A stretch of DNA of 37,814 nt, from the NCBI RefSeq assembly GCF_003148805.1, contig NZ_QGGX01000029.1:1-37814 (forward strand), given 5' to 3'. Both the position numbers and the translations under genes were made by a program. The stretch is from Aminobacter sp. AP02. Its GTDB lineage: Bacteria; Pseudomonadota; Alphaproteobacteria; Rhizobiales; Rhizobiaceae. This document shows positions 3,446-24,573 of this stretch, one piece after another. Below the pieces are notes generated by a model, which was not told the DNA's origin, searched no databases, and saw only the letters and a list, made by a program, of their open reading frames with translations. Each line of letters begins with the position of its first letter. Position 1 is the stretch's first letter.

Positions 3446-4445
3446 AATCGGCGAAGGGATTATCCCTTCCGCCCTCGTTGCCCCGCATGGGCACAATCTG
3501 CCTCGCAATCCCGGGATGGCACTCGATCTCGATTGGGTCGAGGCCGTGCGGGCGAACACCTCGGCGATCGAGCGCCGGACCAAGAGCCTCGTTGCGAGAA
3601 GGACCGCCAAGAAGGATTACCAGGCAGCCTGGCTGTTGCGGGCCGTGTCATGCATCGACCTGACCACATTGTCGGGCGACGACACCGAGGGGCGGGTGCG
3701 GCGCCTTTGCGAGAAAGCCAAGCGGCCGATACGTGCCGACATCCTTGAAGCGCTCGGCATGTCCGGAGTGAACCTGACGACCGGCGCTGTCTGCGTCTAC
3801 CATGAGATGGTCGCGCCGGCGAAACGCTTCCTCAGCGGCAGCGGCATCCCTGTCGCTGCGGTTTCCACGGGCTTTCCCGCCGGCCTTTCGCCACTCGAGC
3901 TCAGGCTGAAGGAGATCGAGGCGTCTGTTGCTGCGGGTGCGAGCGAAATCGACATCGTGATCTCGCGGCGCCATGTGCTCACCCAGAACTGGGTGGAACT
4001 TTACGACGAGATTTCAGCGTTTCGCAAAGCTTGTGGCCATGCGCACATGAAGTCCATCCTTGCCACTGGCGAGTTGAAGACTTTGCGCAACGTCTACAAG
4101 GCGTCACTGGTTGCGATGATGGCCGGCTCCGACTTCATCAAGACCTCCACCGGAAAGGAAGCGGTGAACGCGACGCTGCCGGTATCGCTCGCCATGGTAC
4201 GCGCCATTCGCGACTACCATGAGCGGACCGGGCATTTTGTCGGCTACAAGCCAGCGGGCGGCGTCAGCGCGGCCAAGGATGCGCTTTCGTACATGATCCT
4301 GATGAAGGAAGAACTGGGGCGCCGCTGGATGGAGCCTGATCTCTTCAGGTTTGGCGCGTCCAGCCTGCTTGGCGACATCGAACGCCAGCTCGAGCATCAT
4401 GTCACCGGCGCATACTCCGCCTCTTTCCGCCACCCGCTTGTCTAA
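3432..4445 (+). CDS. deoC: Deoxyribose-phosphate aldolase
   Basis: This 337-aa class I aldolase cleaves 2-deoxyribose-5-phosphate to glyceraldehyde-3-phosphate and acetaldehyde. The Schiff-base lysine is K237 in F-I-K-T-S-T-G-K; K273 (G-Y-K-P-A-G-G) and D174 (E-I-D-I-V) match K201 and D102 of the E. coli enzyme with near-identical spacing. It belongs to the longer, eukaryote-like DERA group, with about 80 extra N-terminal residues relative to the E. coli form. The ATG at 3432 follows GGAAGGGGAA and lies inside the end of deoB (14-bp overlap); an ATG two codons later is also possible. The ALDH gene starts 14 bp after its stop. Confidence 0.96.
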   Translation: MSMPEIGEGIIPSALVAPHGHNLPRNPGMALDLDWVEAVRANTSAIERRTKSLVARRTAKKDYQAAWLLRAVSCIDLTTLSGDDTEGRVRRLCEKAKRPIRADILEALGMSGVNLTTGAVCVYHEMVAPAKRFLSGSGIPVAAVSTGFPAGLSPLELRLKEIEASVAAGASEIDIVISRRHVLTQNWVELYDEISAFRKACGHAHMKSILATGELKTLRNVYKASLVAMMAGSDFIKTSTGKEAVNATLPVSLAMVRAIRDYHERTGHFVGYKPAGGVSAAKDALSYMILMKEELGRRWMEPDLFRFGASSLLGDIERQLEHHVTGAYSASFRHPLV

Positions 4446-4459
4446 AGGGGCTCAAGGCT

Positions 4460-6787
4460 ATGAACGTAAGAGAGATCTTCGAAACGATGGAATACGGCCC
4501 GGCTCCCGAGAGCAAGTCCGAAGCTCTGGCCTGGCTGAACGCTCATGACCGCCGGTTTGGGCTATTCCTCGATGGCGCGTTTTCGGCTCCCTTGACCGGC
4601 ACGACCTTCAAGACGACCTCGCCGGCCTCGGGCGAGACGCTGGCCGAGATCGCGCTTGCCGGCGACGCCGATGTCGATGCGGCGGTGAAAGCGGCGAGAC
4701 GCGCCCAGCCGGCCTGGGCTGCCCTGAAGGGCAGCGAGCGTGCGCGCTTCCTCTATGCGCTGGCCCGCCACGTGCAAAAGCATGCGCGCCTGTTTGCCGT
4801 GCTTGAGACCATGGACAACGGCAAGACGATCCGCGAAAGCCGCGACATCGATATCCCGCTCGCCGTGCGACATTTCTATTATCACGCCGGCTGGGCCTCG
4901 CTTCAAGCAAAAGAGTTCGCAAGCCATGAACCGCTTGGGGTTGCAGGCCAGATCATCCCCTGGAACTTCCCGTTGTTGATGCTGGCGTGGAAAGTTGCGC
5001 CTGCGATCGCGATGGGCAACACGGTGGTGCTCAAGCCGGCCGAGCAGACCCCCCTAACCGCGCTCCTGTTTGCAAAGATCTGCCAGGAAGCGGGACTGCC
5101 TGCAGGCGTTGTCAACATCATCACCGGCGATGGCGGAACGGGTGCCGCGCTTGTCGATCATCCCGATGTCGACAAGGTCGCTTTCACCGGGTCCACGGCT
5201 GTGGGCAAGCTGATCCGCCAGCGCACCGCCGGCAGCGGCAAGAGCCTGACGCTCGAACTCGGCGGCAAGTCGCCCTTCATCGTGTTCGACGATGCCGATC
5301 TGGACAGCGCCGTTGAAGGGATCGTGGATTCGATCTGGTTCAACCAGGGTCAGGTTTGCTGTGCCGGATCGCGTCTGCTGGCCCAGGAGGGCATTGCCGA
5401 AAAACTTTATGCCAAGCTCGCCGCGCGCCTGCGCACCATGCGTGTCGGCGACCCGTTGGACAAATCTGTCGACATGGGCCCCATCGTTTCGGCCGAACAG
5501 CTGGAGCGCATTCGCGAGCTGGTAAAAATCGGAACCAGCGAAGGCGCTGAAATCGTCCAGGCGCCCTGCGACCTGCCTGAGACCGGCTATTTCTATCCGC
5601 CTACGCTTTTGACCAATGTCGAAACCTGTCATCTGGTGGCACAAGAGGAGATCTTCGGCCCCGTGCTGGTGTCGATGACGTTCAGGACACCCGGCGAGGC
5701 GGTCGAGATCGCCAATCACACGCGCTATGGGCTCGCCGCAAGCGTGTGGACCGAAAACGTCAATCTCGCGCTCGACATGGCGCCGAAGCTGAAGGCCGGC
5801 GTGGTGTGGGTCAATTCGGCCAACCTGTTCGACGCGGCAGCCGGCTTCGGTGGCGTCAAGGAGTCCGGCTATGGCCGCGAAGGCGGGCGTGAGGGGCTGT
5901 TCTCCTATCTGAAGCCCATAGCTCCTGCAAAAGCGGCCCAGAAGCCGGCCAAGAAAAGCAAGATACAAGCGGTAGAGGGTGTCGATCGAACGCCGAAACT
6001 GTACATCGGCGGCAAACAGGCACGGCCCGATGGCGGGTACTCCATGGAGGTTAACGCAGCTGACGGTTCCTTACTCGGCCATGTCGGCCTGGGTGGCCGC
6101 AAGGATATCCGCAATGCCGTGGAAGCCGCGCAAAAGGCAGGCAGTTGGGCCGGCGTGTCGGGCTACAACAAGTCGCAGATCCTCTATTTTGTCGCGGAAA
6201 ACCTGGCCGCGCGCCGCCAGGAATTCGAGGCCAGGATCGCGGCCATGACCGGCCGGGACGATGGCGCCGCCGAGCTGGACGAAGCGCTCGACATTCTGTT
6301 CACCTATGCGGCGTGGGCCGACAAGCATGATGGCGCCGTGCATTCCGTTCCGATCCACGGCGCGGTGCTGGCGATGAACGAGCCCAACGGCGTCGTTGGC
6401 ATCGTCTGCCCGAATGATCGTCCCTTGGCTGGTCTGCTCGCGCTGGTCGCGCCGGCGCTTGCCACCGGAAACCGCGTCGTCGTCGTCCCCAGCGAGACGC
6501 ACCCACTGTCGGCAACCGATCTGTACCAGGTGTTCGACACATCCGACCTGCCGGCCGGCGTGGTGAACATCGTGACCGGCAACGCGCTTGACCTGGCGCA
6601 GGTGCTGGCCCAGCACAACGACGTTGACGCGCTCTGGTATGACGGCCCTGGCGAGGGTGTAGCGCCGGTGGAAAAGGCGTCTGTCGGCAATCTGAAAAAG
6701 GTCTGGATAGTCGGCCCCGAAGGCGACCGCGACGTGCTCCGCCACGCGACACAGGTCAAGAACATCTGGATCCCGTACGGAGAGTAG
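4460..6787 (+). CDS. ALDH16-type aldehyde dehydrogenase with a second, incomplete ALDH domain
   Basis: The 775-aa protein has two aldehyde-dehydrogenase domains. Domain 1 (about residues 20-485) is complete: W-N-F-P, G-S-T-A-V-G, the general-base E266 in L-E-L-G-G-K and the nucleophile C300 in G-Q-V-C-C-A-G. A Pro/Ala/Lys-rich linker (about 488-510) leads to domain 2 (about 511-775), which resembles the NAD-binding half of an ALDH (N-G-V-V-G-I-V-C-P, P-A-G-V-V-N-I-V-T-G) but stops before the catalytic-cysteine region. This layout is that of the ALDH16 family, in which the second domain is non-catalytic. Placed just after deoC, it most plausibly oxidises the acetaldehyde made by DeoC to acetate; the substrate is inferred from context. 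It starts 14 bp after deoC and is the last gene of the operon. Confidence 0.9.
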   Translation: MNVREIFETMEYGPAPESKSEALAWLNAHDRRFGLFLDGAFSAPLTGTTFKTTSPASGETLAEIALAGDADVDAAVKAARRAQPAWAALKGSERARFLYALARHVQKHARLFAVLETMDNGKTIRESRDIDIPLAVRHFYYHAGWASLQAKEFASHEPLGVAGQIIPWNFPLLMLAWKVAPAIAMGNTVVLKPAEQTPLTALLFAKICQEAGLPAGVVNIITGDGGTGAALVDHPDVDKVAFTGSTAVGKLIRQRTAGSGKSLTLELGGKSPFIVFDDADLDSAVEGIVDSIWFNQGQVCCAGSRLLAQEGIAEKLYAKLAARLRTMRVGDPLDKSVDMGPIVSAEQLERIRELVKIGTSEGAEIVQAPCDLPETGYFYPPTLLTNVETCHLVAQEEIFGPVLVSMTFRTPGEAVEIANHTRYGLAASVWTENVNLALDMAPKLKAGVVWVNSANLFDAAAGFGGVKESGYGREGGREGLFSYLKPIAPAKAAQKPAKKSKIQAVEGVDRTPKLYIGGKQARPDGGYSMEVNAADGSLLGHVGLGGRKDIRNAVEAAQKAGSWAGVSGYNKSQILYFVAENLAARRQEFEARIAAMTGRDDGAAELDEALDILFTYAAWADKHDGAVHSVPIHGAVLAMNEPNGVVGIVCPNDRPLAGLLALVAPALATGNRVVVVPSETHPLSATDLYQVFDTSDLPAGVVNIVTGNALDLAQVLAQHNDVDALWYDGPGEGVAPVEKASVGNLKKVWIVGPEGDRDVLRHATQVKNIWIPYGE

Positions 6788-6800
6788 ATCCGAAGCATGT

Positions 6801-6832
6801 CGATCGACGCCATTTTGCCGGGCGGTCGATCG
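6801..6832. terminator. Hairpin after the deo operon
   Basis: CGATCGACGCC (6801-6811) pairs with GGCGGTCGATCG (6821-6832) with one bulged base and a 9-nt loop, 14 bases after the ALDH stop. It could end the deo transcript or protect its 3' end; the lack of a T run argues against a strong intrinsic terminator. Confidence 0.4.
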
Positions 6833-7285
6833 GCAAGGCTCGGCAGATAAAGTGCCGCTGCAACGCTGGCCAACGTCCCGAGCTTGTGGACGGTGGCCCC
6901 AAAGACAGCGCTCATCGCGGGCGCAATTTGTGCCCGCGCCGGGCTGAAGCGAACTGCTAGCTCGGCAATTCCACGATCACACACCGACCACCCGGCCAGG
7001 GTACCCTGAGCCGGCAAACACGCAGGCTTCGGCCAACTGCGGCCCTCGCTTTGGCGACTGCGCAATCATGCAATCATGCATGCCATGCCCCATGGCCTGA
7101 TGCTCGCTTGACCACGCAACAGGTCATTTTCCCTCCCCTCGCCGGCCCCACTCGTCCATCCTACAAACCGCTTCAGCTGCGGGCTTGAGAAGCCCGCGAG
7201 CGCGGTCGTGCTGCAATTTGTGGGTCTGAGAGGAGCAAGCACAACCTCCGCTTGACGAAAGGTAAGGCAGATGAGATAACGATCC

Positions 7286-7317
7286 ATAACTAAGTTATAG
7301 ATTACATAGTAATGTAA
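7286..7317. promoter_or_regulatory. Two adjacent AT-rich inverted repeats before the importer operon
   Basis: ATAAC-TAA-GTTAT (7286-7298) and TTACAT-AGTA-ATGTAA (7302-7317) stand side by side 22 bases before the substrate-binding-protein start. Their composition is far more AT-rich than the flanks. They are good candidates for binding sites of the IclR-family regulator encoded at the end of this operon, or for part of the promoter. Function is inferred from position only. Confidence 0.45.
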
Positions 7318-7338
7318 CAATCGGGAAGGGGACCAAGC

Positions 7339-8877
7339 ATGAAACACATGACAACGATTGCCATTTCGCTGGCTGCGATGCTGCTGCCGGCGACTGGCGT
7401 TGCGTGGGGACAGGCGAAGGGTGGCGTGATCGACGTCGCCACCATCGGCGAGCCGCCGACGCTCGATCCGATGGCATCCACCGCCGACCTGGTGGGCATC
7501 GTCACCCAGCACATCTACGAAACGCTCTACACATTCGATAAGGATTGGGGCGTCACGCCGCTGCTCGCCGCCGACATGCCGCAGATTTCGGCAGACGGCA
7601 AAACCTACACCATCGCGCTGCGCACCGGCATCAAGTTCCACGATGGCTCGGACATGAATTCCACCGACGTGGTCGCTTCGCTGCAGCGCTGGATGAAGGT
7701 CGCGACGCGCGGCAAGCAGACCGCGGAAACCGTGACCGCCATCGAAGCCGTCGACGACAACACCATCAAGATCACCCTCAACAAGCCGTTCGCGCCGCTG
7801 CTTTCACTGCTGTCGCTGAACAATGCCGCAGCCATCATCATCCCGTCGGAAGTCGCCGCACAGGACCCACTGACCAGCTTTGTCGGCACCGGCCCCTACA
7901 TGCTGAAGGAGCGCAAGCCCGACCAGTTCATCCAGCTCGCCCGCTTCGACGGCTACAAGTCGCGTGACGGCGAGGCGAACGGTTATGGCGGCGCGCGCAA
8001 GCAGTATCTCGACGAGATCCGCTTCGTGCCGGTTCCCGATCCGAACACCCGCATCGAAGGCGCTGTCTCGGGCCAGTTCGCCTATGTCGATTCACTGCCG
8101 GTGGAATCCTTCGACAAGATTTCGGGTGGCAAGACCGCGCCCGTGATGCTGAAGCCATTCGGGTGGCCGGTGTTCTTCATGAACACCAAGGAAGGGCTGA
8201 ATTCCGACATCAAGATCCGCAAGGCGATCCAGGCAGCACTGGCACCGAAGGACATGATGCTGGCGGCCTTCGGGTCGGAAGAGTTCTTCTCCATCGACGG
8301 CGCCATGTACCCGCAAGGCTACAAGTGGCACAGCGAAACCGGCACGGAGCCCTACAAGCCCGAAGGCGACACCGAAGCCGCGACCGCCCTGCTCAAGGAA
8401 GCGGGCTATGACGGCTCCAAGCCGCTGCGTATCCTGACCAGCCGCCAGTACGAGTTCCACTACAAGCTGGCTCAGGTCGCCGCCGAGTATCTGAAGGCCG
8501 CTGGCTTCAAGGTGCAGATGGATGTTGTCGAATGGGCAACGCTCACAAAGAACCGTACCGATCCGGCCTTGTGGGACATCTACATCACCCACAGCCCGTT
8601 CCTGCCGGAGCCGTCCCTGACCGGTTTCATGTCCGATACCGCGCCAGGCTGGTGGGTTTCCGACAAGAAGCGTGAGGTTCTCGGCGCCTTCAACGCGGAA
8701 TCCGATCCGGCAAAGCGTATTGCCTTGTGGCCGGCAGTTCAGCAGGCCGTCTACGACGAGGTTCCTGCCTTCAAGGTCGGCAATTTCAACGCGCTCGCCG
8801 CCCAGGCACCCAATCTGAAGGGTGTGACGCCGGCCCCGTGGCCCTACTTCTGGAATGCCTATCTCGAAGCCAAATGA
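7339..8877 (+). CDS. ABC importer substrate-binding protein, family 5 (DppA/OppA/NikA type)
   Basis: The 512-aa periplasmic protein has a Sec signal peptide (hydrophobic core I-A-I-S-L-A-A-M-L-L-P-A, cleavage likely near A-W-G-Q-A, about residue 28). The mature part starts with the family 5 pattern I-G-E-P-P-T-L-D-P-M, and has the expected L-A-A-D-M-P and F-H-D-G-S motifs; its length fits the family. It delivers a peptide-like or other amino-containing solute to the two permeases encoded next. The start is supported by GGAAGGGGA at 7323-7331. It is the first gene of a nine-gene plus-strand operon, and a stable hairpin (8942-8968) after it may favour its higher expression. The ligand cannot be read from sequence; the downstream deacylase and PLP enzyme suggest an acylated amino compound. 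Confidence 0.93.
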   Translation: MKHMTTIAISLAAMLLPATGVAWGQAKGGVIDVATIGEPPTLDPMASTADLVGIVTQHIYETLYTFDKDWGVTPLLAADMPQISADGKTYTIALRTGIKFHDGSDMNSTDVVASLQRWMKVATRGKQTAETVTAIEAVDDNTIKITLNKPFAPLLSLLSLNNAAAIIIPSEVAAQDPLTSFVGTGPYMLKERKPDQFIQLARFDGYKSRDGEANGYGGARKQYLDEIRFVPVPDPNTRIEGAVSGQFAYVDSLPVESFDKISGGKTAPVMLKPFGWPVFFMNTKEGLNSDIKIRKAIQAALAPKDMMLAAFGSEEFFSIDGAMYPQGYKWHSETGTEPYKPEGDTEAATALLKEAGYDGSKPLRILTSRQYEFHYKLAQVAAEYLKAAGFKVQMDVVEWATLTKNRTDPALWDIYITHSPFLPEPSLTGFMSDTAPGWWVSDKKREVLGAFNAESDPAKRIALWPAVQQAVYDEVPAFKVGNFNALAAQAPNLKGVTPAPWPYFWNAYLEAK

Positions 8878-8941
8878 CCGGCTGCCACAGCCGTCGAATG
8901 GCGACATCACGCAAACCCTCTGAATGGCCGTCTCGCGGCCA

Positions 8942-8968
8942 CCTCTCCCCTGTTCGAGGGGGGAGAGG
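8942..8968. repeat. REP-like hairpin between binding protein and permease genes
   Basis: CCTCTCCCC (8942-8950) pairs perfectly with GGGGAGAGG (8960-8968) around a 9-nt loop. Palindromes of this CCTCTCCCC...GGGGAGAGG type are, from memory, frequent between genes in rhizobial genomes. Located between the binding protein and the first permease, it could stabilise the upstream mRNA and lower permease expression. It lacks a T tract. Confidence 0.55.
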
Positions 8969-9023
8969 AAGAGCGTTGCCCTTTTAGCCGAAAATGCTTT
9001 TGAAGCCAGGACGTGAAAAGACA

Positions 9024-9965
9024 ATGCTGCGTTCGATCATCAACAGACTGCTCGGCATGATCGTCGTGATGGCGATCGTCGTCACGATCGTCTTTGTCAT
9101 TGTGCGCGTCACGCCGGGCGACCCTGCCGCCGTCATGCTCGGCCCGGAAGCTACCGCCGCCGATATCGCGGCATTGCGCACCAAGCTCGGCCTCGACGGG
9201 TCCATCCTCGAACAATTCGGGCACTATGTGCTCGGCGTGGTTCAAGGTGACTTCGGCCAGTCGATCTTCCTCAACCAGCCTGTCACCGAAGCACTTGCCC
9301 AGCGCGCCGAGCCGACTTTCTTCCTGACGATCTTCTCGCTCTTGATCGCCACAGTTATCGCCTTGCCGGTCGGCATCCTGTCGGCCTACTGGCGCGGCTC
9401 GATCTTCGACCAGGCGGCCACGACCGTTGCCATGTTCGCCGCCAGCGTTCCGAGCTTCTGGCTAGGCCTTTTGCTGATGCAGTTTTTCGCGGTCAAACTC
9501 GGCTGGTTCAACACGTCGGGATACGGCGGTCCGGGCGCCTCGCTGAGCGAGCGGCTCAACCATCTGGTGCTGCCGGCCCTGGCGCTCGGCCTTGTCAGCT
9601 CGGCGCTGATCACCCGCTTCACCCGCGCCTCCATGCTCGACGTGCTGAACGACGACTATGTCCGCACGGCGCGTTCGAAAGGCATGAGCGAATGGCGGGT
9701 GGTGCTGAAGCATGCCTTCAAGAACGCGCTGATCCCGATCCTCACCGTGCTCGGCCTGACCGCTGCACTGCTGATCTCGGGCGCGGTGGTTACCGAAACC
9801 GTGTTCGGCCTGCCGGGCGTCGGCAACCTCGTCGTCTCCGCCGTACTGCGGCGCGACTATCCCGTCATCCAGGGCGCGCTGCTGGTGATCGCCGGCCTCT
9901 ACGTGTTGGTGAACTTCGGCATCGACATGCTCTATCTGCTGGTCGACCCAAGGGTGCGCTACTGA
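9024..9965 (+). CDS. ABC importer permease (DppB type)
   Basis: This inner-membrane permease (313 aa) has an N-terminal helix (about residues 8-32, M-I-V-V-M-A-I-V-V-T-I-V-F-V-I), the T-P-G-D-P motif that follows helix 1 in DppB/OppB proteins, five further membrane segments and the EAA loop that docks to the ATPases (D-D-Y-V-R-T-A-R-S-K-G, about residue 215). I prefer the ATG at 9024 because the protein then starts with the usual short M-L-R basic stretch before helix 1; an in-frame ATG at 8994 would add ten residues without a ribosome binding site. The TGA overlaps the start of the next permease by one base (TGATG), so the pair is translationally coupled. Confidence 0.93.
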   Translation: MLRSIINRLLGMIVVMAIVVTIVFVIVRVTPGDPAAVMLGPEATAADIAALRTKLGLDGSILEQFGHYVLGVVQGDFGQSIFLNQPVTEALAQRAEPTFFLTIFSLLIATVIALPVGILSAYWRGSIFDQAATTVAMFAASVPSFWLGLLLMQFFAVKLGWFNTSGYGGPGASLSERLNHLVLPALALGLVSSALITRFTRASMLDVLNDDYVRTARSKGMSEWRVVLKHAFKNALIPILTVLGLTAALLISGAVVTETVFGLPGVGNLVVSAVLRRDYPVIQGALLVIAGLYVLVNFGIDMLYLLVDPRVRY

Positions 9966-10828
9966 TGGCTGCGATCTCCACTCCGCTGCAGAGCGAACCC
10001 GGGCTGCTGTCGCGCCTCATCACCCGGCGCACCTCGCTGCTCGGCTTGATCGTGCTTGCCATCGTGGCACTCGCCGCGATCCTGGCACCTGTGATCGCGC
10101 CCTATGCGCCGACGAAACTGTCGATCGCCAACCGATTGCACGCGCCCAGCCTGCAGTTCTTGTTCGGCACCGACGATCTCGGCCGCGACGTGTTCACCCG
10201 CATGCTTTATGCGGCGCGGGTTTCGCTGTCGGTCGGTTTCGCCGTGGTAGTTCTGGCTTCCGTCATCGGCATCGTACTCGGCTTGACATCGGGCTTCTTC
10301 CGCAAGGCGGACGCGCCGGTTTCCCGCGTCATCGACGCCATGATGGCCTTCCCCGACATTCTGCTTGCGATCGCGTTGGTCGCGGCGCTAGGCGCCTCGG
10401 CCACCAACGTCGTGATCGCGCTCGGCATCGTCTACGCACCCAGGCTGGCACGCGTCGTGCGCGCCTCGACGCTGGTCATCCGCGAATTGCCCTATGTCGA
10501 GGCGGCACGTGCGCTCGGCGTACCGACGCCAGTAATCCTGGTACGCCATGTGCTGCGCAACGTCACTTCACCACTTCTGGTGCAGGGCACCTTCATCTTT
10601 GCAAACGCCATCCTGGCCGAAGCCGGCCTGTCGTTCCTCGGCGTCGGCATTTCACCCGACATTCCAACCTGGGGCACCATGATCAGTGTCGGCCGCCAAT
10701 ACATGGATCAGGCGCCCTGGATCATGATGATTCCGGGCGGCGCCATCGTCATCACTGTTCTGTCGCTGCAACTGGTCGGCGACGGATTGCGCGATCTCCT
10801 CGACCCACGCCTGGCAAAGGACATCTAG
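9965..10828 (+). CDS. ABC importer permease (DppC type)
   Basis: The 287-aa partner permease has a helix near residues 25-48, the family motif F-G-T-D-D-L-G-R-D-V-F-T-R after it (about residues 62-74), and an EAA loop (P-Y-V-E-A-A-R-A-L-G, about residue 178) for contact with the ATP-binding subunits. It ends with D-P-R-L-A, typical of DppC/OppC. The ATG at 9965 overlaps the stop of the DppB-type gene. The amidohydrolase gene begins 6 bp after its stop, which is unusual in that an enzyme gene is placed between the permease and ATPase genes of one transporter. Confidence 0.94.
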   Translation: MAAISTPLQSEPGLLSRLITRRTSLLGLIVLAIVALAAILAPVIAPYAPTKLSIANRLHAPSLQFLFGTDDLGRDVFTRMLYAARVSLSVGFAVVVLASVIGIVLGLTSGFFRKADAPVSRVIDAMMAFPDILLAIALVAALGASATNVVIALGIVYAPRLARVVRASTLVIRELPYVEAARALGVPTPVILVRHVLRNVTSPLLVQGTFIFANAILAEAGLSFLGVGISPDIPTWGTMISVGRQYMDQAPWIMMIPGGAIVITVLSLQLVGDGLRDLLDPRLAKDI

Positions 10829-10834
10829 AGCGAC

Positions 10835-12054
10835 ATGATCGGCAATCGTTTTCCCAAGGCCGAGCGGCCACTGCTCATCAAGGGCGCGCGACCCATCGGT
10901 TTCGGCACGGCATATGACCAACCGGTGGACATCCTGATTGGCAAGGACGGACGCATCGCCGAGATCGGCACCGCTGTCGCCGCCGGCGACGACGCGCGCG
11001 CGCTCGACGCCAAGGGTGCCTGGATGTCGCCGGGGTGGACCGACATTCACGTCCATGTCTGGTATGGCGGCACCGACATTTCGCTGAGACCCGCGCAGTG
11101 CGGCGCAGCACACGGCGTCACCACCATGGTCGATGCCGGGTCGGCCGGCGAAGCCAATTTCCACGGCCTGCGCGAATTCATCATCGAGCCGGCCCAAGAA
11201 AACATCTACGCTTTCCTCAATCTCGGCTCGATCGGGCTGGTCGCCTGCAACCGGGTCAGCGAACTGAGCGACATACGTTCGATCGACTTCGACCGCATCA
11301 TCGCCACAGTCGAAGCCAACCGCGATGTCATCGTCGGGCTGAAGATACGCGCCAGCCATGTCATAACCGGCGGCTGGGACCTGACGCCGGTCAAGCTCGG
11401 CAAGAAGCTCGGACGCATCCTCAAGCTACCGATCATGGTGCATGTCGGCGAACCGCCCCCGCTTTATGACGATGTGCTCGGCCTGCTCACCGAAGGCGAC
11501 ATCGTCACCCACTGCTTCAACGGCAAGGCCGGCAGCTCGATCCTCGAGGACGAAGACCTCTACCGGCTCGCCGAACAGGCAGCCGCGCACGGCATCGTGC
11601 TCGATGTCGGCCATGGCGGCGCCTCGTTCTCCTTCGACGTCGCCAAGGCCGCGCTCGAGCGCGGCCTGCCGCCGAAGACGATCTCGACCGACCTGCACAA
11701 CCGCTCGATCGACCGCTCGGTGTGGGACATGGCGACGACGATGTCGAAGCTGCTGTCGCTCGGCATGAAGATGGAAGACGTGGTGACGGCTTCCACGACG
11801 GCGCCGCGCCGCGCCATCGGGCTGGCCGCAGACGGGCTGTTGCAAAAGGGCAAGCCGGCCGAATTCACGCTGTTCGACGTCGTCGACGCCGACGTGACCG
11901 TGAAGGATTCGCAAGGGGCCACCAGCACCCTGCACCGCATGTTCGAGCCGCGCCACGCCATCCTCGGCGCCGAGCCTGTCGTCGCGCATCGCTACATGCC
12001 GCCGGCGCGCGGCGGCACCGAGCCACACGCCTGTCCTCATTGCGGATGGAATTC

Positions 12055-12058
<4 letters not shown>
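10835..12058 (+). CDS. Amidohydrolase/deacylase of the cog3964 (EF_0837-like) type
   Basis: The 407-aa metal-dependent hydrolase is of the amidohydrolase superfamily. It shows the H-x-H metal motif in W-T-D-I-H-V-H-V (about residue 70), further ligand regions at H-V-G-E-P-P-P (about 205), T-H-C-F-N-G (about 226) and the D-x-H of S-T-D-L-H-N-R (about 288). Relatives are often misnamed dihydroorotase; from memory, a family member from Agrobacterium (Atu3266) was shown to be an esterase/deacylase, and EF_0837 relatives sit next to SelA-like PLP enzymes, exactly as here. The likely task is to remove an acyl group from the imported compound. The C-terminus carries C-P-H-C-G-W, a zinc-knuckle-like tail of unknown meaning. 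Its stop overlaps the next ATPase start (ATGA). Confidence 0.88.
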
Positions 12059-13070
<1,012 letters not shown>

Positions 13071-13074
<4 letters not shown>

Positions 13075-14066
13075 GTGCCGACACCTTGAAGCCCGAAGCC
13101 AGCGATCAGAAACCGCTGCTCAGCGTCCAGGGCCTGACCAAGCATTTCCCGGCCCGCAATGGGCGCATCGTCCATGCCGTCGAAGACGTCAGCTTCGACG
13201 TCAAGCGCGGCTCGACTGTCGGCCTCGTCGGCGAATCCGGCTCCGGCAAGACGACTGCGGGCCGCTCGGTGCTGCGCCTTGTCGAGCCTACCGGCGGCAA
13301 GGCCATGTTCGACGGCGTCGATCTTTTCGCGCTGTCACCGCGCGAGATGCGGGCCTATCGCCAGCGCCTGCAGATCGTTTTTCAGGACCCGTTTTCGAGC
13401 CTCAATCCGCGCATGCGCATTTCCGCGATCATCAGCGAAGCGCTCGACGCGCGGGGCTTTCCGCGCGGCGAGGCGCGAACCGAGCGCATCGCCGAACTCT
13501 TGACCCTTGTCGGCCTGTCGCCGGACCATGCGACGCGCTATCCGCATGAGTTCTCCGGCGGCCAGCGCCAGCGCATCGGCATTGCGCGTGCGCTGGCGGT
13601 AGAGCCGGAGTTCGTCGTCGCCGACGAGCCGGTCTCCGCACTCGACGTGTCGGTGCAGGCGCAGGTGCTCAACCTGCTCGGCGAATTGCAAAAGAAGCTC
13701 GGGCTGACGCTGCTGTTCATCGCGCACGACCTGTCGGTTGTCGAATATCTCTGCGACGAGGTGGTGGTGATGTATCTCGGCCGCGTCATGGAGCGCGGCC
13801 CGAGCAAAACCGTCTACGCAGCACCCCGCCATCCCTACACCAGGGCGCTGCTTGCAACCGCACCGGTGCCCGATCCGACGCGCCGCCGTACCCATGTTCC
13901 GTTGCAGGGTGACATTCCGAGTCCGATCAACCCGCCGTCGGGCTGCGTCTTTCGCACCCGTTGCCCCGAGGCGATCGGTGCTTGCGCCGAAGTCATCCCG
14001 CCGGTCGAGCATGTCGGTGGCGGGCACCACGTGGCCTGTATCCGCCACAGCGAACCAACTGCCTGA
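13071..14066 (+). CDS. ABC importer ATP-binding protein (DppF/OppF type)
   Basis: The second ATPase (331 aa) has Walker A G-E-S-G-S-G-K-T from residue 54, Q-loop [10 protein letters not shown], signature F-S-G-G-Q-R-Q-R, Walker [14 protein letters not shown] and the H-loop I-A-H-D-L-S-V-V. The C-terminal extension ends with G-C-V-F-R-T-R-C-P, as in OppF. Start and stop of the two ATPases overlap (ATGA at 13071-13074). With the binding protein and two permeases the importer is complete: one binding protein, two permeases and two ATPases. The RidA gene starts 13 bp after its stop. Confidence 0.96.
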
Positions 14067-14079
14067 CTGGAGTACGCAT

Positions 14080-14571
14080 ATGACCTTTTCCGAGGCTTTG
14101 AAGCGTCCGGAAAACACGCCCTATGACCGGCTCAAGGCGCTCGGAATAAAGCTTCCCGATGCACCGCCTCCGATCGCCAATTTCGTTACCCATGTGCAGG
14201 AGGGCAAGCTCTTGTTCCTCTCTGGACAGGGACCGACCGAAGGCAACGGTCGCCAGCATACGGGCAAGGTTGGAGCCGAAGTCAGCGCCGAGGCCGCCTA
14301 CGGCCATGCAAGGCTGACCGGCATCAACCTGATCGCCGTCATGCATGCCGCGCTCGGCGACCTTGGCCGCGTGCGGCGCGTGGTAAAGCTGCTCGGCATG
14401 GTCAATGCGGCACCCGACTTCGCCGACCACCCGTCGGTGATCAATGGCTGTTCGGATCTCTTCATCGACGTGTTCGGGGAAAGCGGCATCCATGCCCGCT
14501 CGGCGGTGGGTCAAGGTTCGCTGCCGGGTCAGATCACCGTGGAAATCGAAGCCATCGTGGCGATTGACTGA
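14080..14571 (+). CDS. RidA (YjgF/YER057c/UK114) family protein
   Basis: The 163-aa protein belongs to the RidA family, whose archetype hydrolyses reactive enamine/imine intermediates such as 2-aminoacrylate released by PLP enzymes. It is of the longer, about 155-165-residue subgroup, with L-F-L-S-G-Q-G-P near residue 45, V-V-K-L-L-G-M-V-N near 105 and a carboxylate-binding R in H-A-R-S-A-V-G near 140. That arginine is the conserved ligand-binding residue in active members. It lies directly before a SelA-like PLP enzyme gene (35 bp apart), which makes imine clean-up for that enzyme the natural hypothesis. GGAG at 14069-14072 supports the ATG at 14080. Confidence 0.9.
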
Positions 14572-14592
14572 GGATACCTGTAATGGACATGC

Positions 14593-14598
14593 GGGAGG
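14593..14598 (+). promoter_or_regulatory. Ribosome binding site deciding the start of the SelA-like gene
   Basis: GGGAGG (14593-14598) stands 8 bases before the ATG at 14607. The reading frame also contains an earlier ATG at 14583, but that has no comparable site and would put this strong site inside the gene. I therefore take 14607 as the start. Confidence 0.6.
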
Positions 14599-14606
14599 GA
14601 AACACC

Positions 14607-15806
14607 ATGCCGAAAGACGATATACGCAGCCGCCTCGGCTTGAGGCCGGTGATCAACGTCTCCGGCACCATGACCTCGCTCGGCGCTTCGATCGTGGTGC
14701 CGCAAGCAGTGGAGGCAGTTTCGGCGATCCTCAGCGAATTCGTCGAACTCGGCGACCTGCATCGGCGCGCCAGCACCGTGATCGCAGACCTGACCGGCGC
14801 CGAGGCCGGTTTCATCACCGCCTCCTGCTCTGCCGCGATCAGCCTCGCGGTCGCGGCCGCCATGACCGGGCCTGATCTGGCGGCAATCGAGCGCCTGCCC
14901 GACACCACGGGCCTCAAGGACGAGATTCTCATCCAGTCAGGCCATCTCGTGAGTTACGGCGCGCCGGTCGATCAGGCGATCCGGCTCACGGGTGCAAAGG
15001 TGGTGCCAGTCGGCCAGGCGACGAGCGCGTCGGCCTACCAGCTACGCGGAGCCATCACCGAGCGCACCGCTGCCGCCGTCTATGTCGTTTCGCATCACGT
15101 GGTCGACTATGGGCAGATCCCGCTGAAAATTTTCGCCGCCGTTGCCCATGAACGCGGCGTGCCCGTCATCGTGGATGCCGCTTCCGAATACGATCTGGCT
15201 GGCTTCCTCGCCGACGGTGCCGACCTGGTGCTTTACTCCGGCCACAAATTCCTCGGCGGCCCGACCTCCGGCATCGTCGCCGGGCCGAAGGAAATGGTGC
15301 GCGACGTCTATCTGCAAAACCGAGGCATCGGCCGTGGCATGAAGGTCGGCAAGGAAGGCATCGTCGGCACGCTGGCCGCGCTGCAGGCCTGGAAGACACG
15401 CGACCATCACGGCATCCGTGCCCGCGAGAAGAAGGCCCTCGACTGCTGGGTCGAGGCGCTGGATGGCAGGGCCGGCATTACCGCCACGATCACTGCGGAT
15501 CCGACCAACAATCCGCTCGACCGGCTGATGATTTCGGTCAATCCGGCTGAAGCTCGCATCACTGCCTGGGACCTGGCCGACAGGATGGGGACCGGCGACC
15601 GTCCGGTGATCGTGCGCGACCACGAGGTCGAACACGGCTATTTCTATCTCGATCCCTGCAACCTGCATCCCGATGAGGAATTTGTCGTGGCGGCGCGGCT
15701 TGCCGAGGAACTCGACCGCGCGCGCGGCTCCAACGAGATCATTGCGACGCCCTTCGACGAAAGGCTTTTGGCACGCGAAGCCGCGATCCTCAAATGGCCG
15801 GATTGA
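14607..15806 (+). CDS. SelA-like / D-glucosaminate ammonia-lyase-like PLP enzyme
   Basis: The 399-aa protein is a fold-type I PLP enzyme of the group annotated as SelA-like or DgaE-like. The cofactor lysine is K214 in [10 protein letters not shown], equivalent to the S-G-D-K-L-L-G-G-P-Q of selenocysteine synthase; the Asp that binds the pyridine nitrogen is in V-I-V-D-A-A-S-E (about residue 190). It lacks the tRNA-binding N-terminal domain of true SelA, and no selenocysteine genes are near, so selenocysteine synthesis is unlikely. DgaE of Salmonella, a relative, eliminates ammonia from D-glucosaminate. An alpha,beta-elimination would release an enamine, which fits the RidA gene just upstream. 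The exact substrate is unknown. Confidence 0.85.
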
Positions 15807-15863
15807 CCTGTTCGCGCGCGTGCGGACACCCTACAATGCTTTCGACAAGAATTCTGGATTCCC

Positions 15864-16679
15864 ATGCCGAAAACCGTTGCAAAGCATGACGATAGGCCCG
15901 CTGGCGAACCGCGCCGCTCGCGCACGAGCGGCATCGACCGGGCGCTGCAGATCCTCGACTACCTGCAGAAGACCGAGCGGCCGGCGACCGCCTACGAGAT
16001 CGCGCGCGACATCGGCGCACCGCTGTCGACCATCTACGTGATCGTCGACGATCTCGTCGAAAAAGAGCTGCTCGACCGCCACGATGGCGGCCTTTTGTGG
16101 CTTGGCCCGCGGCTCTATCACTATGGCCTGACCTATGCCCGTACGCTAGACCTGCTCAATGTGGCGGTTCAGGAGATGCATGAGCTTGCCGAAAGCTCCG
16201 GCGAGACGATCCAGATTTGCGGCCGTGACGGCGACCAGATGGTCGTGCTGGCGATGGAAGAGGGCAAGGACCATTTCCAGGTCACATCGCGCGTCGGCAC
16301 CCGCAGCCCGCTCAACTGGACGGCGTCGGGCCGCATGCTGATCGGCCATCTTCCGGAAGCGGAGCGCCGCGAGATATTCGCCCGTTCTGCGACAGTCTCG
16401 CCAACCGGCCGCGCTGAAACCGACAAGGATGTTCTGGCGAGAACTGCCGCGGCAGCGCTGGAAGAAGGACTTTCGATCCAGGCCGGCGAGTCCGATTTTT
16501 CCGTGGCCTGTATTGCCGCGCCGGTTTGCGACAACCAGGGCGCCTGCCGCGCGACGATCTCGATCGTCGTGCCTGATATCAAGCTGAGACAGAAGAACCC
16601 CGACCTGATTGCGTTGGTGAAGACCAGTGCCCGGCGCATCGAGGCACGTCTCGGCTGGCGGCCCAATCGATCGCAATGA
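15864..16679 (+). CDS. IclR-family transcriptional regulator
   Basis: The 271-aa protein has an N-terminal winged helix-turn-helix (about residues 22-85; S-G-I-D-R-A-L-Q-I-L-D-Y-L-Q-K, then A-Y-E-I-A-R-D-I-G-A-P-L-S-T-I-Y) and the IclR effector-binding domain (about 100-262) with the typical T-A-S-G-R-M-L-I. The first 20 residues are basic and probably disordered. It is the last gene of the importer operon, 57 bp after the PLP enzyme, and most likely controls it by sensing the substrate or a product. The AT-rich inverted repeats at 7286-7317 are candidate targets. Whether it activates or represses cannot be told. Confidence 0.93.
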   Translation: MPKTVAKHDDRPAGEPRRSRTSGIDRALQILDYLQKTERPATAYEIARDIGAPLSTIYVIVDDLVEKELLDRHDGGLLWLGPRLYHYGLTYARTLDLLNVAVQEMHELAESSGETIQICGRDGDQMVVLAMEEGKDHFQVTSRVGTRSPLNWTASGRMLIGHLPEAERREIFARSATVSPTGRAETDKDVLARTAAAALEEGLSIQAGESDFSVACIAAPVCDNQGACRATISIVVPDIKLRQKNPDLIALVKTSARRIEARLGWRPNRSQ

Positions 16680-16742
16680 GCGAGCGTGGGACGGCGGCTG
16701 GCCGCCAGTGCGAATTATCGTGTCTGCAATGACCTAAAGCAA

Positions 16743-16779
16743 AAAGTACCGCCACGAGACTTGCTCAGGACGGTACTTT
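16743..16779. repeat. Inverted repeat AAAGTACCG / CGGTACTTT
   Basis: Perfect 9-bp arms (16743-16751 and 16771-16779) enclose 19 bases. The same word occurs twice more downstream as AAAGGTACCGTC (starting about 16895) and AAAGTACCGTC (starting about 17039). The arms could fold as a hairpin at the end of the importer operon, or be binding sites of a recombinase or regulator. Confidence 0.5.
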
Positions 16780-16905
16780 CAACAATTCGACGGCATCAGG
16801 CCAGGATGGGGCTCATTCCCACTCCATTATTTTTTCAGCCGTAAGCAGCTGATATGTCTATGAAAAACAAAATGGTCGGGCAAATATGCCGTGAAAGGTA
16901 CCGTC

Positions 16906-16937
16906 AAAAACCTAGCCTTTTGATTTTGCTAGGTTTT
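16906..16937. terminator. Strong bidirectional hairpin
   Basis: AAAAACCTAGC (16906-16916) and GCTAGGTTTTT (16928-16937) are perfect complements around an 11-nt loop. With A-rich 5' and T-rich 3' arms it can act as an intrinsic terminator for either direction. Confidence 0.6.
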
Positions 16938-17121
16938 TCAGAGCGAATCTAGCTGAAAAAATTCAGTGAACTATCGGCATCTATCGACCGCTTCGCAGCG
17001 AGGCATAGACGGCAAAAGTCGAAACTAGCGCCCCGATAAAGTACCGTCAAAACCGGCAAAATCAGTATACCCGTCTCGATCCTGGATCGCTGGGGTGCCG
17101 GGCTGGGATCGAGCACATCGC

Positions 17122-17293
17122 ATGGACGTCAAAGTTGCAGCTGGCGTTACAGGTACGGCGTTGAAAAAGACCTGTGATCGCCACCACATTCCAACTCCGG
17201 AACGTGGGCACCGGGCCAAGCTGGAATACGGCAAGCGGGCCACCAAGGAAGTGCTAGCGCCACTGACCGAACCAAATTTGTCGACGATCAGGA
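17122..17293 (+). pseudogene. Fragment of a hypothetical protein with an HTH-like N-terminal motif
   Basis: The frame reads V-T-G-T-A-L-K-K-T-C-D-R-H-H-I-P-T-P and then G-H-R-A-K-L-E-Y-G-K. This pattern (V-S-D-x-A-L-x-K-x-C-R-x-x-x-I-P-x-P-x-x-G-x-W-A-K) occurs, from memory, as a helix-turn-helix-like segment in many uncharacterised proteins of plasmids and phages. The usual Trp is replaced by Arg here. It has no credible start or full-length body and runs directly into the antitoxin fragment in another frame, so I regard it as a remnant. Confidence 0.35.
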
Positions 17294-17736
17294 TATCGAC
17301 GCCCCCGCGGACTGCTGAGCTGGCAGCAGGTCACTATTTCGCTCCAGACGCTCCTCGACCATCGCCTTGTCGTTGGCGGCCGGACAGCTCTCGATCTGCA
17401 GGGTTATGCCCATTACCTCTCGAACGGCGGTTCTGAGGTTTACCTTCACGGTCCAACGAAGCCTCCCAAATGGCTCACCGTGCTGCCACTCAAGGAGCAA
17501 TTCGCCTACCGCAACAGCACACCGCTCTTTGGGAGCGACCTCGACGAGGTGCACTTCCCTCCCCTCGTTCCGGGTGCCAGCAAGCAAGGCGACCGGCCTC
17601 TCCAGGAGGCCGGAGTTCGCCCGCTTGCGTGGGGACAATGGGATGGCCGCTCACGGTTTCGGCCCCTGAACGCGCAATCCTTGAGCTTCTCGACGAACTA
17701 CCGGACCAAGAAAGCTTCCATCAGGTCGACGCGCTC
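17294..17736 (+). pseudogene. Truncated, frameshifted AbiEi-type antitoxin (type IV TA)
   Basis: Frame 1 (from 17294) reads Y-R-R-P-R-G-L-L-S-W-Q-Q and later V-V-G-G-R-T-A-L-D-L-Q-G-Y-A-H-Y-L, which is the core of AbiEi-type antitoxins of about 260 residues. A single missing base near 17643 (W-G-Q-W-D then W-P-L-T) moves the rest to another frame, where [15 protein letters not shown] continues the family pattern. The homology ends abruptly at about 17736, where the GroEL-derived sequence begins on the other strand. Both ends of the gene are missing and no AbiEii nucleotidyltransferase toxin gene is present. The intact protein would be a winged-helix repressor/antitoxin; this copy cannot be functional. 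Confidence 0.75.
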
Positions 17737-18714
17737 AGGCACGACGCCCTCCTCAACCGCTGCTCGCGTGGCATTCAGAGCGTCGTCGATACGGTCCTTC
17801 TTTTCCTTGACCTCGGTCTCGGTCGCGCCGCCGACCCGGATCACCGCCACGCCGCCGGCGAGCTTGGCCAACCGCTCCGCTACCTTGAGGCCGCCGCGCA
17901 GCTTGTTGACGACGAGCGTCGCGAGCGACTCGCCCTCGACGGCTTCGGCGATTATCAGCAGGGGTTTGCCGCTCTGAACCACAGCTTCAAGGACCGGCAG
18001 CATGGCCTGAAGGTTGCCAAGTTTCGTCTCGTGGATGAGGATGTAAGACTCCTCCAATTCGACGCGCATCTTCTCGGCACTGGTGATGAAGTAGGGAAAG
18101 CGATCGAACTGCATGCCCTCGACCATGTCGAGCTCGGTCCCAGCGGTCTTGGCTTCCTCGACGGTGATCCCACCTTCATTGCCAACCTTGTCCATTGCCC
18201 TGGCTATCATCTCGCCAATCGTGGCGTCGCCATTCGCGGCAATAGTTCCGACCTGGGCCACCTCAGCCGAAGACTTCACCTTTTTGGCCCTCGCCTGGAT
18301 ATCCTGAAACCTGGCGAACTTCCTAGTGTTTTCAACGGCGGTTGCGGTGCTGCCGTTATCGAGGAAGCCGCGCCAGAAGAACAGGTTGCCGTAGGTTGAC
18401 GAGCGCAACACGAAATAGCCTTCCTCGCCTTCATAACCCGGCGACAAGAGCAGGTATTTTCCGCCCTTGCCCTTGTCGGGACCGGCATTGCCGACATCGC
18501 CGACATATTGGAACCAGTGATCGTCGATCATGCCGAGGATGTTGGGCGGCGTCTCGATGACCAGCGGACCCGCCTTGGTGTCCAGCCGCATCAGATTGTA
18601 GATGCTTTCGGTGTTGCCGGTCAGGAACAGCGAATACGAGTCCATCAGGATTTCCGACAACCGCAATAATGTACAGCCCAAGCCATATAGTGGGACAACT
18701 GAAAGACCACGCAA
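17698..18714 (-). pseudogene. In-frame chimera: DUF1254 fragment fused to deleted GroEL
   Basis: One open frame of 338 codons joins two unrelated proteins. The first part (from about M at 18645 to about 18310) matches part of a DUF1254 domain: [22 protein letters not shown] and [13 protein letters not shown]. From about 18305 to 17737 it is GroEL ([19 protein letters not shown]). Compared with the intact GroEL at 32683-34308 it lacks the first ~130 residues, the G-Y-L-S segment of D-R-G-Y-L-S-P-Y-F, 92 residues between L-K-V-A and E-R-L-A-K, and everything after E-E-G-V-V-P. The last 12 codons read antisense into the antitoxin fragment. Loss of the apical-equatorial continuity rules out chaperonin function. 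All internal joins keep the frame, which is odd for a dead gene. Confidence 0.8.
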
Positions 18715-21817: not shown

Positions 21818-21915
21818 CTGAACTCTCCATCGTTGATGTAGTTGGGCCCGAACTGCCGGGCAAGATTTGGTATCGGACGCCCCTGTGACGGGGCGTCCGG
21901 CCTTGGCGGGGTGCG

Positions 21916-24365: not shown

Positions 24366-24428
24366 CCTGGCAACATTCGGTTTGATACCACACAAAACCG
24401 GCCCCCGTTGACGGGCCTGATCGCAGAA

Positions 24429-24461: not shown

Positions 24462-24538
24462 TAGCCGCCCCCTGAAACCTGCCGAAGACATCAGTGGCGC
24501 GCGCCAACTATACTCCTCGGTTGGCTAGAAACCAAAAA

Positions 24539-24565: not shown

Positions 24566-24573
24566 CTATGCTA

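What the first reader, a model, noticed from the sequence alone, without database searches (positions are those of the whole stretch)
7339..16679. Nine-gene IclR-controlled import and degradation operon with deacylase, SelA-like PLP enzyme and RidA
A complete oligopeptide-type ABC importer is interleaved with a cog3964 amidohydrolase (placed between permease and ATPase genes), then RidA, a SelA-like PLP enzyme and IclR, with start/stop overlaps through most of the operon. The family roles suggest a route: uptake, deacylation, PLP-dependent elimination, RidA hydrolysis of the enamine/imine to a keto acid. EF_0837-type hydrolases and SelA-like enzymes are known to co-occur with a KDPG-type aldolase, but none is present here, so the substrate may not be a sugar acid. 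I know of no described pathway with this gene set.
Basis: partly seen in the sequence, partly recalled or inferred. Interest (0 to 1): 0.75.

Follow-up and report, generated by a model that had tools for sequence, protein, structure and literature searches.

The report
Operon for eating acylated amino-sugar acids
A widely conserved but unnamed soil-bacterial operon that probably imports an acylated D-amino acid, most likely an amino-sugar acid of the kind made from chitin, strips the acyl group and turns the rest into ammonia and a keto acid.

Summary
Nine + strand genes at 7339-16679 encode an oligopeptide-type importer, a cog3964 amidohydrolase, a RidA-family protein, a SelA-like PLP enzyme and an IclR regulator; starts and stops overlap at 3 of 8 junctions, not most. 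It is a real unit: of 80 named relatives RidA is found in 78, the amidohydrolase in 72, IclR in 69. The amidohydrolase is of the PDB 2ogj type (Atu3266, name recalled). [quoted passage not shown] In relatives it sits with other importers: polar-amino-acid ABC, gluconate-type GntP, or (divergent forms) sugar ABC with an SDR. The amidohydrolase is in 83 of 85 loci with the oligopeptide importer and 0 of 23 with only another recognised importer. I infer uptake of an N-acyl 2-amino-3-hydroxy acid, most likely an N-acyl-2-amino-2-deoxyaldonate such as N-acetyl-D-glucosaminate, then deacylation, PLP water elimination/deamination and RidA hydrolysis. N-acyl-D-Ser/D-Thr is the main rival. The route resembles the ong pathway of oxidised-chitin use, with different enzymes. 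New variant of a known kind; substrate untested.

The parts
7302..7317 (.). palindrome TTACATAGTAATGTAA, probable IclR operator upstream of the first gene
   Evidence: Only site with at most 1 mismatch in the 5.6 Mb genome; 11 of 17 relatives have an arm match of at least 6 of 7 at the same place, in several with both arms changed together (ATTCCAT..ATGGAAT), 6 have a weaker, shifted or other best repeat; at spacing 4, 9 of 18 regions have 6-of-7 arms (shuffles mean 1.1, max 4) and 2 of 18 have 7-of-7 (mean 0.05, max 2)
7339..8877 (+). solute-binding protein of the oligopeptide (SBP_bac_5) family
   Evidence: PF00496 230.9 bits, cut-off 32.4; model pLDDT 80.7 closest to class-5 binding proteins, among them binders of agropinic acid, sialic acid, peptides and nickel
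9024..9965 (+). ABC permease 1 (alternative start 8994)
   Evidence: PF00528 150.9 bits
9965..10828 (+). ABC permease 2
   Evidence: PF00528 90 bits plus OppC_N
10835..12058 (+). cog3964 amidohydrolase (presumed deacylase), 2ogj/Atu3266 group
   Evidence: NF006689 423.1 bits, cut-off 371; PDB 2ogj 541.9 bits; His72, His74, Lys170, His203, His226, Asp286 invariant in 73 of 73 rows
12055..13074 (+). ABC ATPase 1 (alternative start 12046)
   Evidence: ABC_tran + oligo_HPY
13071..14066 (+). ABC ATPase 2
   Evidence: ABC_tran + oligo_HPY
14080..14571 (+). RidA-family protein, presumed imine/enamine deaminase
   Evidence: PF14588 62 bits (cut-off 35), PF01042 45.1 (27.3); Arg140, aligned with the Arg of the ARS motif of E. 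coli YjgF, in 77 of 77 rows
14583..15806 (+). SelA-like PLP enzyme, presumed ammonia-lyase of the DGL (DgaE) kind (alternative start 14607)
   Evidence: PDB 7lc0 (DGL) 256.7 bits; Lys222 in 91 of 91 rows; Cys359 at DGL phosphate Arg346 in 81 of 90
15864..16679 (+). IclR-family regulator
   Evidence: IclR_C 99.9 bits, HTH_IclR 36.3

Best explanation
A locally regulated catabolic operon for an N-acylated D-2-amino-3-hydroxy acid, most likely an N-acyl-2-amino-2-deoxyaldonate (N-acetyl-D-glucosaminate or a stereoisomer, free or at the end of a small saccharide). Steps: (1) binding protein, two permeases and two ATPases import the acylated acid; (2) the cog3964 metalloenzyme removes the acyl group; (3) the SelA-like PLP enzyme removes the alpha proton and the 3-OH, giving an enamine/imine; (4) RidA hydrolyses this to a 2-keto-3-deoxy acid and ammonia, sparing other PLP enzymes; (5) the keto acid is phosphorylated and cleaved by enzymes encoded elsewhere. 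IclR acts from the palindrome at 7302-7317. Shown: gene content, conservation, family placement, catalytic residues kept. Inferred: every reaction, the substrate class, the operator and its sign.
For: Conserved unit. Closest solved relatives of the SelA-like protein are DGL 7lc0 and 8t7j; DGL eliminates the 3-OH of D-glucosaminate-6-phosphate, and its authors discuss RidA as the disposal route for such enamines (PMC9529869, parts 1 and 2 of 3 seen). Two of three DGL phosphate arginines are kept, the third is Cys in 81 of 90 rows and Thr in 5: fits an unphosphorylated, ABC-imported substrate. The amidohydrolase tracks the importer: in 83 of 85 loci with the oligopeptide importer, 0 of 15 with only a polar-amino-acid importer, 0 of 3 with GntP, 0 of 5 with sugar importers; on the tree 4 of 4 supported independent pairs go the same way in nearly all of 200 pairings. 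So the Opp ligand is probably the acylated form and the others carry the free one. The GntP protein is over the gluconate:H+ symporter cut-off (TIGR00791 480.5 bits, cut-off 292.75), its best single models are gluconate carriers (397.2) above DsdX (317.6). Divergent relatives pair the enzyme with sugar importers and SDR (5 of 5), with a gluconolactonase-family gene in L193, aldose epimerase and ROK repressor in L195. GH1 beta-glucosidase inside the operon in Martelella L134, an ORF of the same length in that slot in L144. A 6-phosphogluconolactonase-like gene in that slot in L150, an amidohydrolase operon without a SelA-like gene. The ong pathway has the same step order.
Against: No substrate is shown. 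As recalled (paper not held), Atu3266 hydrolyses N-acetyl-D-serine very poorly and acetyl-(R)-mandelate well, so its true substrate may have a bulky side chain or an ester. The amidohydrolase gene lies inside the Opp gene block, so their co-occurrence is partly trivial, and 4 tree pairs cannot reach significance (p 0.125). R. leguminosarum WSM1325 (L210) and L206 have Opp importer, RidA and SelA-like gene without the amidohydrolase beside them. No RidA of 45% identity or more is beside 6 of 15 polar-amino-acid-importer loci. Some relatives sit in amino-acid settings: CuyA/CuyB (L201), DoeB-like deacetylase (L189), gamma-glutamyltransferase and hydantoinase B (L205). No KDG kinase or aldolase was recognised by eye among the 45 largest neighbour clusters. 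Two phosphate arginines and the His pair that makes DGL release the imine rather than the enamine are retained. The operator is unique in the genome, so no distant kinase gene shares it. GntP also holds D-serine carriers. 28 of 136 loci show no recognised importer.
Confidence: 0.5

Rival explanations
1. Same route, but for N-acyl-D-serine, N-acyl-D-threonine or D-residue-containing small peptides; the keto acid is pyruvate or 2-ketobutyrate.
For: Opp and polar-amino-acid importers are matched best by peptide and amino-acid systems; GntP family includes DsdX; no kinase or aldolase needed; cysteate racemase and D-cysteine-desulfhydrase-family enzymes near SelA-like genes in L201 and L189; OngC also deaminates D-serine and D-threonine; N-acetyl-D-serine was, as recalled, the first weak hit for Atu3266.
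Against: Recalled very low rate of Atu3266 on N-acetyl-D-serine; GntP fits gluconate models best; sugar importers, SDR, gluconolactonase and aldose epimerase beside divergent SelA-like genes; GH1 inside a Martelella operon; the closest assayed relative, DGL, acts on a C6 amino-sugar acid.
Confidence: 0.27
2. The amidohydrolase is an esterase for O-acyl (R)-2-hydroxy acids with bulky side chains, or a deacylase of a D-aryl amino acid; the SelA-like step then acts on a beta-substituted aromatic amino acid.
For: Recalled: Atu3266 is fastest on acetyl-(R)-mandelate; an Agrobacterium copy of this operon carries a protein about 97% identical to 2ogj (10 differences counted by eye in 388 residues).
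Against: An alpha-hydroxy acid is no substrate for a PLP enzyme; that compound came (as recalled) from a focused library and need not be physiological; no aromatic-degradation gene was recognised by eye among the 45 largest neighbour clusters.
Confidence: 0.12
3. The SelA-like protein is not a lyase (for instance aldolase or racemase), and RidA has another role.
For: Scores below the DgaE and selA_rel cut-offs; only homology links it to DGL; the role of RidA (OngD) is unsolved even in the ong pathway.
Against: PLP lysine in 91 of 91 and the paired His in 86 and 82 of 91 rows; RidA in 78 of 80 loci, as expected for a partner of an enamine/imine-releasing enzyme.
Confidence: 0.08

Closest known systems
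ong pathway for N-acetyl-D-glucosaminate, Pseudoalteromonas prydzensis ACAM 620 (PMC9537276, passages and sections 13 and 16 seen; PMC12017989, abstract and outline seen)
   Same: Order of steps: inner-membrane import, N-deacetylation, PLP deamination of a D-2-amino-3-hydroxy acid, RidA-family protein in the cluster and essential for growth.
   Different: SSS symporter instead of ABC importer; OngB is closest to D-aminoacylases and OngC is of fold type III, not cog3964 and SelA-like (fold type I, recalled); the cluster has KdgK, a hexosaminidase and a MurR/RpiR regulator, none of which is among the nine genes here.
Dga pathway (DgaABCDEF), Salmonella, D-glucosaminate (PMC9529869, parts 1 and 2 of 3 seen)
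   Same: SelA-like ammonia-lyase homologous to DGL; PLP lysine, paired His and two of three phosphate Arg kept.
   Different: Dga uses PTS uptake with phosphorylation and an aldolase gene (DgaF); here ABC uptake, a deacylase, no PTS, no aldolase, third phosphate Arg replaced by Cys.
Atu3266 of Agrobacterium (PDB 2ogj; link of name and entry recalled), cog3964
   Same: Amidohydrolase 541.9 bits to 2ogj; an Agrobacterium copy of this operon (L139) carries a protein about 97% identical to 2ogj (861 bits).
   Different: Studied as an isolated enzyme; no pathway known to me (paper recalled, not held).
EF_0837 (TIGR03583; PDB 2ics, link recalled)
   Same: Family-level relative, 308 bits.
   Different: Below the curated cut-off of 432.

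Membership tests
[quoted passage not shown] TIGR01437 cut-off 385.3) | tested here: not met
   303.4 and 311.5 bits
[quoted passage not shown]
   Lys222 91 of 91 rows, His171 86 of 91, His172 82 of 91
[quoted passage not shown]
   Arg314 and Arg345 kept, Cys359 replaces Arg346; position by alignment only
L-seryl-tRNA(Sec) selenium transferase (SelA) | curated score TIGR00474, cut-off 267.9 | tested here: not met
   66 bits
cog3964 / Atu3266 amidohydrolase group | curated score NF006689 (PRK09237), cut-off 371 | tested here: met
   423.1 bits
cog3964 / Atu3266 amidohydrolase group | metal-ligand pattern HxH, Lys, His, His, Asp (pattern recalled for the superfamily) | tested here: met
   all six in 73 of 73 rows
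cog3964 / Atu3266 amidohydrolase group | hydrolysis of N-acyl or O-acyl (R)-acids | not testable with these tools
   enzyme assay needed
EF_0837 deacetylase | curated score TIGR03583, cut-off 432.15 | tested here: not met
   308.1 bits
RidA (Rid) family | Pfam membership and catalytic Arg | tested here: met
   PF14588 62 bits and PF01042 45.1 bits over cut-off; Arg140 77 of 77
RidA (Rid) family | TIGR00004 subfamily score, cut-off 106.25 | tested here: not met
   37.4 bits; so a divergent Rid subgroup
Opp/Dpp-type ABC importer | SBP_bac_5, two permeases, two oligo_HPY ATPases | tested here: met
   no equivalog cut-off met among the families shown, so ligand not assigned
ong pathway | D-aminoacylase-type OngB, fold-III OngC, KdgK, SSS symporter | tested here: not met
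   families of the nine genes against PMC9537276
ong pathway | growth on N-acetyl-D-glucosaminate | not testable with these tools
   growth test needed

The most novel reading that the evidence does not exclude
This is a second, independently assembled pathway for N-acylated 2-amino-2-deoxyaldonates, common in rhizobia and relatives, that feeds on oxidised chitin ends or on the 2-aminogluconate of rhizobial lipid A, and whose SelA-like gene encodes the D-glucosaminate dehydratase (EC 4.3.1.9) once purified from Agrobacterium (enzyme recalled, no paper held) and, to my knowledge, without an assigned gene there.
Probability: 0.3. Interest if true: 0.7.

Novelty: new variant of a known kind. Interest (0 to 1): 0.5.

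Why it matters
The gene set is common (184 plasmid records carry the SelA-like gene, 136 of them Rhizobium; 39 of 397 sampled genomes of the order at E up to 1e-85) yet, in the annotated records seen, is labelled by family only: mostly 'aminotransferase class V-fold PLP-dependent enzyme', once 'seryl-tRNA(Ser) selenium transferase protein', 'amidohydrolase/deacetylase family metallohydrolase' and 'RidA family protein'. A correct assignment would name a carbon and nitrogen source of root-associated bacteria, give a physiological setting to Atu3266 (solved structure 2ogj), and show the same deacylate/deaminate/RidA chemistry reached twice with different enzymes. The hypothesis is testable with a few purified proteins.

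Tried and rejected
Rejected: chance clustering or a recent local arrangement (interleaved tree). Rejected: true selenocysteine synthase. Considered and not supported: that lack of an aldolase excludes a sugar acid. Tried without result: a distant regulon for the IclR operator (one site only); sigma-70 scan of 6700-17300, none found, shuffles mean 1.8, although a TTGAC is aligned upstream in all 18 sequences; Rfam and tRNA scans of the window, none; literature for Atu326x genes, none relevant. The listings of the ten paper searches that ran showed no paper on this gene set; for only 15 of 475 and 15 of 3,111 papers were listed, and one search was badly framed and says little. PMC11103875 searched for IclR, SelA, oligopeptide, amidohydrolase and RidA: no occurrence. 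PMC2842291: one passage seen, about a glucosaminate deaminase in Cupriavidus, not followed. The NagB-type and ROK genes beside the operon in Phyllobacterium and Ensifer were dropped as support because each was seen in one genus only. A rhamnose-isomerase-like neighbour (by eye) found in 11 loci of several genera was not followed.

Rows dropped or doubtful: one search examined 139 loci, 3 had no SelA-like match, 136 are tabulated, 28 of these showed no recognised importer, some because contigs end nearby. For the tree, 1 row (L078) was skipped for a stop and near-identical rows were thinned, 127 to 82, plus 3 outgroup rows. The loci read were picked by me from the search rows, more from the divergent than from the close relatives, so the proportions are not a survey.
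Full report
Observation. The only correction is that starts and stops truly overlap at 3 of 8 junctions; the rest are gaps of 6 to 146 bases. The genome has one strong match each to this amidohydrolase and this SelA-like protein; its other matches are partial or about 31-46% over short stretches.

Is it a unit? Searching those 80 loci with the nine window proteins found SBP 68, permeases 68 and 72, amidohydrolase 72, ATPases 59 and 73, RidA 78, IclR 69; 48 loci have all nine, 18 in the window's exact order; 22 plus 10 have the order SBP, permeases, amidohydrolase, RidA, divergent IclR, SelA-like, ATPase(s). Genera include Mesorhizobium, Labrys, Devosia, Nitratireductor, Microvirga, Phyllobacterium, Rhizobium, Ensifer, Agrobacterium and Brucella (tritici). 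Flanks differ: apart from ABC-transporter ATPases, no non-core neighbour cluster was found in more than 11 loci. More distant members with the same set occur in Sagittula and Qingshengfaniella (Rhodobacterales; one ATPase is not listed in the latter). The gene is patchy: 39 of 397 sampled genomes of the order and 17 of 385 of the class at E up to 1e-85, divergent relatives included. Plasmid records: 184 with the SelA-like gene, 177 with the amidohydrolase.

The enzymes. The amidohydrolase best matches PDB 2ogj (541.9 bits); an Agrobacterium copy of the operon (L139) carries a protein scoring 861 bits to 2ogj over 388 of 388 residues (10 differences counted by eye), so Atu3266, the protein of 2ogj (link recalled), belongs to this operon type. 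Six presumed metal ligands are invariant in 73 of 73 rows. What I recall of the Atu3266 study (not held): N-acetyl-D-serine a very weak substrate, acetyl-(R)-mandelate a good one. The SelA-like protein matches DGL (7lc0, 256.7 bits) and 8t7j (204.7 bits) but is below the DgaE and selA_rel cut-offs. In DGL a docked model places the phosphate near Arg301, 332 and 346 (PMC9529869). By the alignment these are Arg314, Arg345 and Cys359 here; across 91 rows Arg314 is kept in 88, Arg345 in 86, and position 359 (90 rows with a letter) is Cys in 81, Thr in 5, Arg in 3, Val in 1. The paired His of DGL, which in that enzyme favour release of the imine, are kept in 86 and 82 of 91 rows, so a RidA partner would act mainly on the imine or on escaped enamine. 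RidA keeps the arginine that aligns with the ARS motif of E. coli YjgF in 77 of 77 rows.

A natural experiment with importers. Around 136 SelA-like genes (a chosen set, not a survey) I found five importer types. Opp type: 85 loci (one of them, L122, with the polar-amino-acid type too), amidohydrolase in 83. Polar-amino-acid ABC alone: 15 loci, amidohydrolase in 0, RidA in 9. GntP: 3 loci (Paraburkholderia and Caballeronia plasmids L211, L215, L216), amidohydrolase 0, RidA and IclR 3. Sugar importers (CUT1 or CUT2): 5 loci, amidohydrolase 0, SDR beside all 5, RidA in 1. No recognised importer: 28, several cut by contig ends. L122, a Bosea MAG contig, has Opp genes with amidohydrolase and the polar-amino-acid importer in one row of genes. 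On the tree (82 rows plus outgroup, quick method) importer types are interleaved, at least 10 changes over 62 rows; for example the polar-amino-acid rows L086, L088 and L177 (support 99) lie inside a starred 20-row group made up of Mesorhizobium, Labrys, Devosia and other mostly Opp rows. On supported branches 4 independent pairs can be drawn and in nearly all of 200 pairings the amidohydrolase follows the Opp importer in all 4 (3 of 4 in a few), but 4 pairs cannot reach significance (p 0.125), and the amidohydrolase lies inside the Opp block, so the link is partly trivial. Counter-cases: L206 and R. leguminosarum WSM1325 (L210) have Opp without the amidohydrolase. I read this as: Opp brings the acylated form, the others the free amino acid.

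What substrate? Pointing to an amino-sugar acid: the GntP protein is over the gluconate:H+ symporter cut-off and fits gluconate models better than DsdX; the sugar-importer loci carry an SDR with, in L193, a gluconolactonase-family gene and, in L195, an aldose epimerase and a ROK repressor; Martelella L134 holds a GH1 beta-glucosidase between SBP and permease, with an ORF of the same length there in L144, and L150, an Opp and amidohydrolase operon without a local SelA-like gene, has a 6-phosphogluconolactonase-like gene in that slot; DGL itself acts on a D-amino-sugar acid. Pointing to ordinary amino acids: L201 (CuyA, CuyB), L189 (DoeB-like deacetylase), L205 (gamma-glutamyltransferase, hydantoinase B), and the amino-acid importers. 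The binding-protein model (pLDDT 80.7) resembles class-5 binding proteins whose ligands range from agropinic and sialic acid to peptides and nickel chelates, so it does not decide. A possible source in soil is oxidised chitin; another is the 2-aminogluconate of Rhizobium and Sinorhizobium lipid A (PMC5644692, passage seen). This last link is inference.

Regulation. A 16-base palindrome lies at 7302-7317. It is the only such site within one mismatch in the 5.6 Mb genome. In 11 of 17 relatives a repeat with at least 6 of 7 matching arm bases lies at the same place; in several the arms differ from the window's but have changed together. The other 6 have a weaker, shifted or different best repeat. 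This fits a local IclR operator and argues against a wider regulon. Whether IclR represses or activates is not known.

Comparison with the known. The ong pathway (PMC9537276: passages, sections 13 and 16 seen) has import, deacetylation of N-acetyl-D-glucosaminate, PLP deamination to KDG, KDG kinase, and an essential RidA protein of unknown role. Here the sequence of chemical steps would be the same, with a different importer, deacylase family, PLP enzyme family and regulator. It is therefore not a member of ong, but works like it if the substrate guess is right. It is also not DgaE by curated score, and the PTS and aldolase of Dga are absent. I found no paper on this operon in the listings of the ten searches made; subscription journals are mostly not held.

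Verdict. Real and widely conserved; route inferred with fair confidence (about 0.75 for acylated amino acid to keto acid plus ammonia), amino-sugar acid about 0.5, N-acetyl-D-glucosaminate itself about 0.35. New variant of a known kind.

Noticed in passing
17701-18645 (-): A 315-residue ORF whose start matches DUF1254 and whose end matches a chaperonin 60 fragment: looks like a chimera or decayed fusion. A GroES/GroEL-like pair (recognised by eye) lies at 32683-34702.
   Followed up: partly
1227-6787: Upstream cluster that looks like deoxyribonucleoside use: sugar-binding regulator, metalloenzyme (phosphopentomutase-like by eye), DeoC-type aldolase and a 775-residue protein with two aldehyde dehydrogenase stretches.
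   Followed up: no
20807-31320: Two sulfatase-family proteins, an HAD hydrolase and a DUF1254/DUF1214 protein.
   Followed up: no
L086, L088, L177: Two tandem SelA-like paralogues (55-60% and 69-71% to the window protein) after a polar-amino-acid importer and RidA; may act on different epimers or as a hetero-oligomer.
   Followed up: no
L150 (G231 contig 300): Amidohydrolase and Opp importer operon with a lactonase and an NAD-binding 6PGDH-like protein but no SelA-like gene: a possible different fate for the deacylated product.
   Followed up: partly
L201: Divergent SelA-like gene beside D-cysteate sulfo-lyase CuyA and cysteate racemase CuyB.
   Followed up: no
L154, L161: Divergent SelA-like (44-47%) and amidohydrolase (33-34%) genes with an M81/MlrC-family protein.
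   Followed up: no
L134 (Martelella), L210 (R. leguminosarum): The two ATPase genes are replaced by one gene of 611 codons after the SelA-like gene, probably a fusion; many Rhizobium-group loci likewise show a single ATPase hit there.
   Followed up: no
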